64,000 bases of DNA from Desulfomicrobium escambiense DSM 10707 (lineage in GTDB: Bacteria; Desulfobacterota; Desulfovibrionia; Desulfovibrionales; Desulfomicrobiaceae), in assembly GCF_000428825.1 (NCBI RefSeq), contig NZ_AUAR01000001.1, positions 186,001-250,000 of the forward strand, read 5' to 3'. The position numbers and the translations under genes were made by a program. This document shows positions 19,050 through 62,251 of this stretch, in pieces; within the stretch, counting starts at the first letter, position 1, and every line of letters starts with the position of its first letter. The notes under the pieces were generated by a model. The model saw only the letters and a list, made by a program, of their open reading frames with translations. It had not been told where the DNA came from and did not search any database.

Positions 19050-19216
19050 CCGTGCGGGCTTGAGGGCCGGCCCGTCGGAACTTCCTCGCCGGCCTCGTAG
19101 AGTTCAGCCATCGCTCCTTGGGCCGGGTTTGTGCGCGCTTTGCGGGTGGCGATGGCTGAACAAACGATGCCTGGCTCGGTCGGACAGCCGACGAGCCGGC
19201 CCTCAAGCCCGCACGG
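19050..19216. repeat. long hairpin element, copy 1
   Basis: Perfect 22-bp outer arms (19050-19071 and 19195-19216), a CGTCGG/CCGACG pair inside them, then a 13-bp inner stem (19102-19114 with 19149-19161). Between the outer and inner stems the right strand carries the core cgatgcctggctc-gtcggacag and the left strand cgccggcctcgtag. Both recur in the copy at 61968; the right-strand core also recurs at 53745. The arm sequences differ between copies but still pair. It lies between the DUF4079 terminator and the dus gene. It could be a structured RNA, a mobile hairpin element or a protein-binding site. Confidence 0.8.
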
Positions 19217-53565: not shown

Positions 53566-53740
53566 GAACGGGAAACGAGGGCATGCTCTTCGTGATGGCG
53601 GTTAGAACCGCGAGCATCTCGGTGTCATCCCCGCGAAGGCGGGGATCCATCTTCGTAATATAATGCATGGATCCCCGCCTTCGCGGGGATGACACATGAG
53701 TAGGGCGATGACGTCATCACGTTGACCAGGCTGGCGGCAA
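53541..53740. repeat. direct repeat, left copy (contains the 3' end of the sbcC-like gene)
   Basis: 53541-53646 matches 57189-57294 over 106 bp with only about five differences, and 53669-53740 matches 57345-57416 over 72 bp with about six. The left copy begins inside the last eight codons of the ATPase gene. Together the two copies bracket 3.4 kb containing the lipase, immunity and small-ORF genes. This looks like an insertion or duplication boundary; no integrase or transposase is present between them. Confidence 0.9.
53622..53695. repeat. REP-like inverted repeat
   Basis: Perfect 29-bp inverted arms (53622-53650 and 53667-53695) around 16 bp, each built on the ccccgcgaaggcgggg palindrome. 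Similar palindromes are common extragenic repeats in many proteobacteria. Two further copies lie in the right-hand direct repeat: a self-contained hairpin at 57271-57298 and a half copy from 57345. Confidence 0.9.
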
Positions 53741-53744
53741 CAAA

Positions 53745-53850
53745 AACGACCCTCGTAATGCTTCCCGGCCTTGAGTATTGGTCATAGGGGGGCGCTTCGC
53801 ACGTGACACGGCCGGGAAGCAAACGATGCCTGGCTCGGTCAAACAGTCGA
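53745..53850. repeat. long hairpin element, copy 3 (partial)
   Basis: Inner stem of 11 bp (53760-53770 with 53810-53820), preceded by CCTCGTA and followed by acgatgcctggctcggtc and acagtcgacgg, the same conserved core as at 19050 and 61968. The outer left arm is missing or decayed, probably because the REP-like repeat abuts it. Confidence 0.7.
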
Positions 53851-53946
53851 CGGCCCTCGCCGGAGACCGCCCGACACGCTTGAACCGAGCGTTTGGCGAG
53901 ATGGTGGAAAGGGAAGAGGGGACAATTGTTCCAAGTGCTTCCCGCT

Positions 53947-61967: not shown

Positions 61968-62134
61968 GGGGCGCTTCGTTCCGGCCAGGGCCGTCGAAAC
62001 TCCATCGCCGGCCTCGTAGGGCTTCCCCGTCGCGTGCGGAGCAGGAGGCTGAGCGTGGGCGACGGGCGACGGGGAAACCGACGATGCCTGGCTCAGTCGG
62101 ACAGTCGACGACCCTGGCCGGAACGAAGCGCCCC
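61968..62134. repeat. long hairpin element, copy 2
   Basis: Perfect 23-bp outer arms (61968-61990 and 62112-62134), an inner CGTCGA/TCGACG pair, and an 11-bp inner stem (62023-62033 with 62066-62076). The right strand carries cgatgcctggctcagtcgg and the left cgccggcctcgtagg, as in copy 1. The outer and inner arm sequences are unrelated to those of copy 1, yet each pairs perfectly. Total length is 167 bp, the same as copy 1. Confidence 0.82.
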
Positions 62135-62172: not shown

Positions 62173-62238
62173 CAGGGGGAGAGAACGGGAAAAACAGGGG
62201 GAGAGAACGGGAAAAACAGGGGGAGAGAACGGGAAAAA
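62173..62238. repeat. 22-bp tandem repeat, three units
   Basis: Three identical 22-bp units (62173, 62195, 62217) built of a polypurine stretch, then a partial fourth. They lie just beyond the cytochrome c3 terminator. The strand bias (purines on the plus strand) could favour triplex or slippage; no coding role is likely. Confidence 0.85.
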
Positions 62239-62251
62239 CAGGGGGGAAAGA

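What the first reader, a model, noticed from the sequence alone, without database searches (positions are those of the whole stretch)
19050..19216. A 167-bp hairpin element with conserved core and compensating arm changes
Copies at 19050 and 61968 are both 167 bp, with perfect 22-23-bp outer stems of unrelated sequence, a short CGTCGR/YCGACG pair, and different inner stems. They share a conserved internal core on both strands (cgccggcctcgtag; cgatgcctggctc). A partial third copy lies at 53745. Pairing kept while sequence changes is the mark of selection on structure. It could be a noncoding RNA, a folded single-strand substrate for an HUH or integron-like recombinase, or a protein-binding cruciform. 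Three copies in 64 kb imply many in the genome.
Basis: seen in the sequence. Interest (0 to 1): 0.75.

Follow-up and report, generated by a model that had tools for sequence, protein, structure and literature searches.

The report
Dispersed hairpin element, likely structured RNA
Certain sulfate-reducing bacteria carry tens of scattered copies of a 170-base hairpin whose arms keep changing letters yet stay paired, which shows that evolution preserves the folded shape of one strand, most likely as RNA; it matches no catalogued RNA family and its job is unknown.

Summary
Both 167-bp hairpins are exactly as described; the third is a degraded copy without the outer stem. The own genome holds 21 copies. 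Relatives in Desulfomicrobium hold 3 to about 60, and Desulfonatronum is the second rich genus. No Rfam family matches.

Selection on folding is very strong. In 96 distinct aligned copies, 42 of 54 pairs change on both sides and 95.9% of cells pair. Orthologous copies in different species re-pair site by site, while the internal core stays about 95% identical.

Non-Watson-Crick cells are A.C in its orientation and therefore G.U on the opposite (minus) strand; locus clusters split 39:5 and 23:2. An RNA read from the minus strand is the best reading. Folded single-stranded DNA is not excluded, because I have no expression data.

The core carries two tandem G.A motifs. In Desulfonatronum, copies ride in MITEs with terminal repeats and 8-10 bp target duplications. 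In Desulfomicrobium no MITE ends are seen; copies are oriented against the replication fork (56/67 loci) and lie downstream of, and in sense with, a gene (48:17). No own promoter, terminator or HUH partner nearby. Function is unsolved; a cis-acting 3'-end RNA structure is my leading guess.

The parts
19050..19216 (-). full-length hairpin element, copy 1 (folding strand = minus)
   Evidence: sequence; 159.7 bits with R1, 163.5 with R2 in opposite orientation
19050..19071 (.). outer stem arm, 22 bp perfect with 19195-19216
19195..19216 (.). outer stem arm, partner of 19050-19071
19073..19099 (-). core strand; on the minus strand UACGAGGCCGGCGAGGAAGUUCCGACG, carries the GA / GA halves of the two tandem G.A motifs
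19102..19114 (.). inner stem arm, 13 bp with 19149-19161
19149..19161 (.). inner stem arm, partner of 19102-19114
19163..19193 (-). core strand; on the minus strand CGUCGGCUGUCCGACCGAGCCAGGCAUCGUU
61968..62134 (-). full-length hairpin element, copy 2; orthologous copies in G002, G011, G012 with compensatory changes
61968..61990 (.). outer stem arm, 23 bp perfect with 62112-62134
62112..62134 (.). outer stem arm, partner of 61968-61990
61992..62018 (-). core strand of copy 2
62079..62110 (-). core strand of copy 2
53729..53855 (-). degraded third copy: inner stem and one core strand kept, outer stem lost
   Evidence: (57.8 bits, model positions 25-151)

Best explanation
A dispersed, multi-copy structured RNA element encoded on the window's minus strand. 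SHOWN: a hairpin of about 170 nt whose outer (about 25-bp) and inner (about 13-bp) stems are free in sequence but kept paired at each locus; a conserved internal loop with two tandem G.A motifs; strand-specific wobble tolerance; in Desulfomicrobium, many copies inherited at the same site by several species, orientation against the replication fork and a preferred position downstream of and in sense with a gene; in Desulfonatronum, carriage inside MITEs. INFERRED: the folding molecule is RNA, reached by read-through from the neighbouring gene because no own promoter is detectable; the G.A module is a protein-binding site; the element works in cis on the 3' end of that transcript (processing, stabilisation or termination), perhaps mattering most for transcripts that run head-on into forks; it entered genomes on MITEs and was then retained by selection.
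For: Covariation: 42/54 pairs with both-side change, 95.9% of cells paired, 0/500 shuffles and no slid register comes close. Orthologous loci: 63 pairs of copies with aligned flanks; core 94-96% identical, stems 83-84%, flanks 87%; 223 pair cells with both bases changed to another Watson-Crick pair; shown for the 61968 copy. Strand: on the minus-strand orientation G.U 142 vs A.C 33 cells in Desulfomicrobium (39 locus clusters vs 5, p=1.4e-7) and 38 vs 5 in Desulfonatronum and others (23 vs 2, p=2e-5); a U.G pair in 78/97 copies alternating with C-G in 17; model R2 of that strand outscores R1 on most copies it was not built from. Core: G38.A146 97/97, A39.R145, G42.A142 96/97, A43.G141 94/97, flanking pair U-A 54 / C-G 33. 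Position: 5'-side gene in sense 48:17 (p=1.5e-4), head-on by local GC skew 56/67 (p=2e-8), the two being independent; head-on by position in two complete genomes 24/26 and 23/28.
Against: No promoter excess upstream (21/141 vs 21/141 on the mirror strand) and no terminator downstream. Lack of an intrinsic terminator on the sense gene is not significant by locus (7/47 vs 12/41, p=0.12; background 16/81), so the 3'-end role has no direct support. Neighbouring genes are unrelated housekeeping genes. Desulfonatronum copies show neither orientation bias, so the bias is not essential to the element. No expression data exist here. One copy (L048) scores better in the other orientation (120.9 vs 111.2).
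Confidence: 0.45

Rival explanations
1. A folded single-stranded DNA substrate (HUH transposase, integron-like recombinase, or a replication or primosome site). The same strand folds, but as ssDNA exposed at replication forks; orientation bias reflects the strand on which it inserts or works.
For: Strong replichore orientation bias in Desulfomicrobium. G.T is also better tolerated than A.C in ssDNA (general knowledge). Y1 HUH transposase genes occur in 8 of 11 copy-bearing congeners and 1 of 5 copy-free ones.
Against: The folding strand is the C-rich one, i.e. the leading-strand template, not the exposed lagging-strand template. A G.U:A.C ratio of 4-8 is larger than DNA mismatch energies would suggest (inference). 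Only 1 of 19 Y1 gene loci has copies nearby, about as expected by chance. G013 has many copies and no Y1 gene. No conserved end sequences or boxes. No orientation bias in Desulfonatronum.
Confidence: 0.2
2. A trans-acting small RNA family: each copy is an independent sRNA gene of one function, multiplied for dosage, like multi-copy Rsm/Csr-type RNAs.
For: Uniform size and core, random gene neighbours, tandem arrays, structure kept copy by copy.
Against: No promoter or terminator signal. Redundant copies would be expected to decay, but almost all collected copies are intact. The preference for lying downstream of a sense gene is unexplained.
Confidence: 0.15
3. Purely selfish MITE: the hairpin serves only its own transposition and has no host function.
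For: In Desulfonatronum and one other family it sits in MITEs of two end types with 8-10 bp target duplications; nearly the same MITE (81-86% identity) occurs in two families. The 19050 copy is present in two sister species and absent from the same site in seven congeners with the same gene order.
Against: Resident copies at orthologous sites keep re-pairing long after insertion, which selfish fossils should not do. No terminal repeats beyond chance in Desulfomicrobium. No cognate transposase found.
Confidence: 0.13
4. Mutational artefact: arms of a DNA palindrome correct each other (intra-hairpin conversion or template switching), or strand-biased deamination mimics wobble tolerance.
For: Arms are nearly perfect Watson-Crick; palindromes can be homogenised in bacteria (general knowledge).
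Against: Symmetric correction gives no strand asymmetry, yet G.U:A.C is about 4-8:1 on one strand in two genera. Deamination on the G-rich strand would push the asymmetry the other way in Desulfomicrobium and cannot act consistently in Desulfonatronum, where orientation is random. The core loop is conserved beyond its flanks.
Confidence: 0.04

Closest known systems
MITEs / bacterial SINE-like hairpin repeats (e.g. Correia elements, ERIC, SMAG)
   Same: short, dispersed, intergenic, hairpin-forming; in Desulfonatronum has terminal inverted repeats and target duplications
   Different: in those families the stem sequence itself is conserved between copies; here the stems are free and co-vary while an internal loop is conserved, and in Desulfomicrobium there are no transposon ends
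REP/BIME elements with RAYT (Y1) transposases
   Same: dispersed 3'-of-gene hairpins; Y1 genes exist in most copy-bearing congeners
   Different: about 170 nt, conserved internal loop, Y1 genes not near copies (1/19)
Integron attC sites
   Same: structure kept while sequence varies, one strand folds
   Different: attC conserve their end boxes; here ends are free and the middle is conserved; no cassette genes were seen between tandem copies
Structured noncoding RNA families of Rfam
   Same: strong covariation, strand-specific wobble, conserved internal-loop module with tandem G.A pairs
   Different: no Rfam 15 family matches; copy number of 20-60 per genome and replichore bias are unusual

Membership tests
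any Rfam 15 family | covariance-model match at gathering score | tested here: not met
   none in the window; permissive scans of the 19050 copy and six other loci gave only sub-threshold hits over the element
structured RNA (as a kind) | covariation beyond shuffled and slid controls | tested here: met
   covariation score 0.675 vs 0.190+/-0.006
structured RNA (as a kind) | G.U favoured over A.C on the sense strand | tested here: met
structured RNA (as a kind) | is transcribed | not testable with these tools
   no expression data; promoter scan negative
MITE | terminal inverted repeats plus target-site duplication | tested here: inconclusive
   met for at least 8 Desulfonatronum-type copies; in Desulfomicrobium flanking inverted repeats do not exceed control
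MITE | cognate transposase in the genome | tested here: not met
   ISAs1-type genes in 2 of 9 genomes, their ends do not match beyond CAGGG
REP/RAYT system | hairpins next to a Y1 transposase gene | tested here: not met
   copies near 1 of 19 Y1 gene loci, about the chance number
integron attC | conserved inverse-core and core boxes at the ends | tested here: not met
   ends are the least conserved part
group II intron or retroelement | linked or co-occurring reverse transcriptase | tested here: not met
   RVT_1 absent from the own genome and most copy-bearing congeners

The most novel reading that the evidence does not exclude
A new class of cis-acting RNA that sits at the 3' ends of genes transcribed against the replication fork, recognised through a double tandem-G.A internal loop by an unknown factor, and that limits transcription-replication conflict or R-loops; it travels between genera as MITE cargo.
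Probability: 0.1. Interest if true: 0.9.

Novelty: new variant of a known kind. Interest (0 to 1): 0.62.

Why it matters
It is a structured nucleic-acid family with very strong covariation, absent from Rfam, present in tens of copies per genome and maintained copy by copy. A repeat whose paired stems are free in sequence while an internal loop is fixed, and that is oriented by replichore in one genus but carried in MITEs in another, would give a tractable case of a mobile hairpin becoming a host-maintained RNA. The covariance models and the conserved G.A module make the binding factor directly searchable by pull-down.

Tried and rejected
Rfam at gathering and permissive thresholds: no family. 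Viral, plasmid and phage collections: no match. Group II intron / reverse transcriptase link: rejected. Y1/HUH adjacency: rejected as a physical link. ISAs1 as the moving transposase: only the CAGGG end agrees (that hallmark is from memory), not accepted. Own promoter or terminator: not found. 3'-end terminator role through absence of intrinsic terminators: not significant by locus. Insertion-site mapping at L150 turned out to be a partial deletion of the element in G002, not an empty site. A hit in a Corynebacterium-like contig (L250) did not score with the model and is taken as chance. Papers: no description found in the held library.

Full report
OBSERVATION. The two 167-bp hairpins at 19050-19216 and 61968-62134 are present exactly as described, with perfect 22- and 23-bp outer arms of unrelated sequence, a CGTCGR/YCGACG pair, different inner stems and a common core on both arms. 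The copy near 53745 keeps only the inner stem and one core strand. A 13-base core pattern and then a covariance model (R1, from 16 own copies) found 21 distinct places in the own 3.78-Mb genome, 20 of them full length (five further rows are antisense hits of the same places).

DISTRIBUTION. In the genus 11 of 16 genomes have copies; listed matches run from 3 to 61 per genome and include some antisense double hits; a complete 2.8-Mb congener (G004) has none. In the order 24 of 247 genomes match; the second rich genus is in another family. A spread sample of the phylum gave only the own genome. Record titles and contig lengths identify the two rich genera as Desulfomicrobium and Desulfonatronum. 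No match was found in viral, plasmid or phage collections, and none in Rfam 15. Tandem arrays occur, for example three copies 296 bp apart in G012 and an array of 4.3 units of 226 bp in G021.

SELECTION ON STRUCTURE. I collected 171 non-identical copies with flanks. On the alignment of 97 Desulfomicrobium copies (96 distinct), 95.9% of 5177 cells form standard pairs, 42 of 54 pairs show changes on both sides, and the covariation score is 0.675 against 0.190 +/- 0.006 in shuffles and at most 0.164 in slid registers. This alignment was fitted to the structure, so I also compared orthologous copies found by their flanks alone: in 63 pairs, 223 pair cells changed on both sides to another Watson-Crick pair; the core is 94-96% identical, while stems (83-84%) and flanks (87%) drift freely. 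These 63 pairs are not all independent. The 61968 copy itself has orthologs in three species with 12 such pairs. So the fold is preserved at each site after insertion.

WHICH STRAND. On the other strand these are G.U. Counted by independent locus clusters, G.U exceeds A.C in 39 and is lower in 5 in Desulfomicrobium (p=1.4e-7), and 23 vs 2 elsewhere (p=2e-5). One core pair is U.G in 78 of 97 copies and C-G in 17. A model built from the opposite strand (R2) scores most copies higher, e.g. L212 111.9 to 121.8, L215 108.2 to 118.9, L097 84.3 to 102.4, with some exceptions such as L048. Strand-biased deamination cannot explain this: in Desulfomicrobium it would act in the opposite sense and in Desulfonatronum copies have no preferred orientation. 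The strand asymmetry shows which strand folds; that it folds as RNA rather than as ssDNA is inference from the size of the G.U preference.

ANATOMY (minus-strand orientation). Outer stem about 25 bp, free sequence; YCGAC-type closing pairs; 5' bulge CUGUC opposite UU; U.G pair; tandem G.A/A.R; C-G; covarying Y-R pair; second tandem G.A/A.G; short GC-rich helices with an A.G mismatch; UCGU/ACGA helix; inner stem about 13 bp, free sequence; variable loop of about 35 nt. Double tandem G.A modules are typical protein- or tertiary-contact sites in RNA (general knowledge).

SURROUNDINGS. In 67 independent Desulfomicrobium loci the folding strand is the C-rich, head-on strand in 56 (p=2e-8), and the gene on the 5' side is in sense in 48 against 17 (p=1.5e-4); the two biases are independent, and divergent (promoter) regions are rare (6). 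In two complete genomes, with origin and terminus placed by GC skew, 24/26 and 23/28 copies are head-on (tandem copies counted separately). Flanks are G-poor on the folding strand for about 60 nt on each side. I found no promoter or terminator enrichment and no significant lack of intrinsic terminators on the sense gene. Neighbouring genes are unrelated. Desulfonatronum copies show neither bias.

MOBILITY. Desulfonatronum-type copies lie in about 250-bp units with inverted ends CAGGGCAwwTTTGTTCTCAC and 9-10-bp target duplications (L086, L087, L090, L091, L212, L215), or with ends GTAACTACTCAGCA and 8-9-bp duplications (L203, L207) (element pairs). So the same hairpin rides in MITEs of two end types, and one such MITE occurs in two families at 81-86% identity. 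In Desulfomicrobium no such ends exceed control. The 19050 copy is shared only with the sister G013; in seven congeners that keep the upstream gene, terminator and downstream gene (L274-L279, L281) the site lacks it, and the insert begins close to the T-run of the upstream gene's terminator. No cognate transposase was found.

MECHANISM. Best reading: an RNA element that acts from within transcripts, probably read-through from the sense gene on its 5' side, bound through the G.A module, with stems as scaffold. The cis 3'-end role is the least supported step. HUH or integron-like use of folded ssDNA remains possible because of the replichore bias, but the folding strand is the wrong one for the exposed lagging-strand template and HUH genes are not near copies.

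VERDICT. A real, strongly selected, uncatalogued hairpin family; the strand is corrected; RNA is likely; function open.

Noticed in passing
window 53622-53695: a second kind of hairpin repeat: 29-bp perfect inverted repeat GTGTCATCCCCGCGAAGGCGGGGATCCAT with a 16-nt loop, directly next to the degraded third copy; similar pieces flank copies in other congeners
   Followed up: partly
window 62173-62245: tandem repeat of a 22-bp unit CAGGGGGAGAGAACGGGAAAAA, 3.3 perfect copies, just beside the 61968 hairpin
   Followed up: no
L009, L010, L030, L059, L157 flanks (beyond the element's 5' side on the folding strand): a recurrent palindrome GGGGTGCAGGGGACGCGTCCCCTGCCCGCCGGAGGC lies near many Desulfomicrobium copies and may be a separate repeat family
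   Followed up: no
L062 / L147 (G012): tandem copies share a spacer with CTCCCCTCCTGCCAAGGAGGGGTGCCCGAAGGGCGGGGTGGTT, another dispersed repeat
   Followed up: no
Desulfonatronum loci L102, L113, L129 and others: other short units of about 190-220 bp share the CAGGGCAwwTTTGTTCTC ends but are shorter than the hairpin-bearing units, i.e. probably further MITEs of the same end type
   Followed up: partly
L097 11419-12387 (G021): array of 4.3 units of 226 bp of a divergent form of the hairpin between a glycosyltransferase-like gene and a short ORF, in a family distant from the two rich genera
   Followed up: partly
L224 2485-2654: a copy very like own-genome copies in a contig filed as Solidesulfovibrio magneticus MAG UBA7700; horizontal transfer or a binning error
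   Followed up: no
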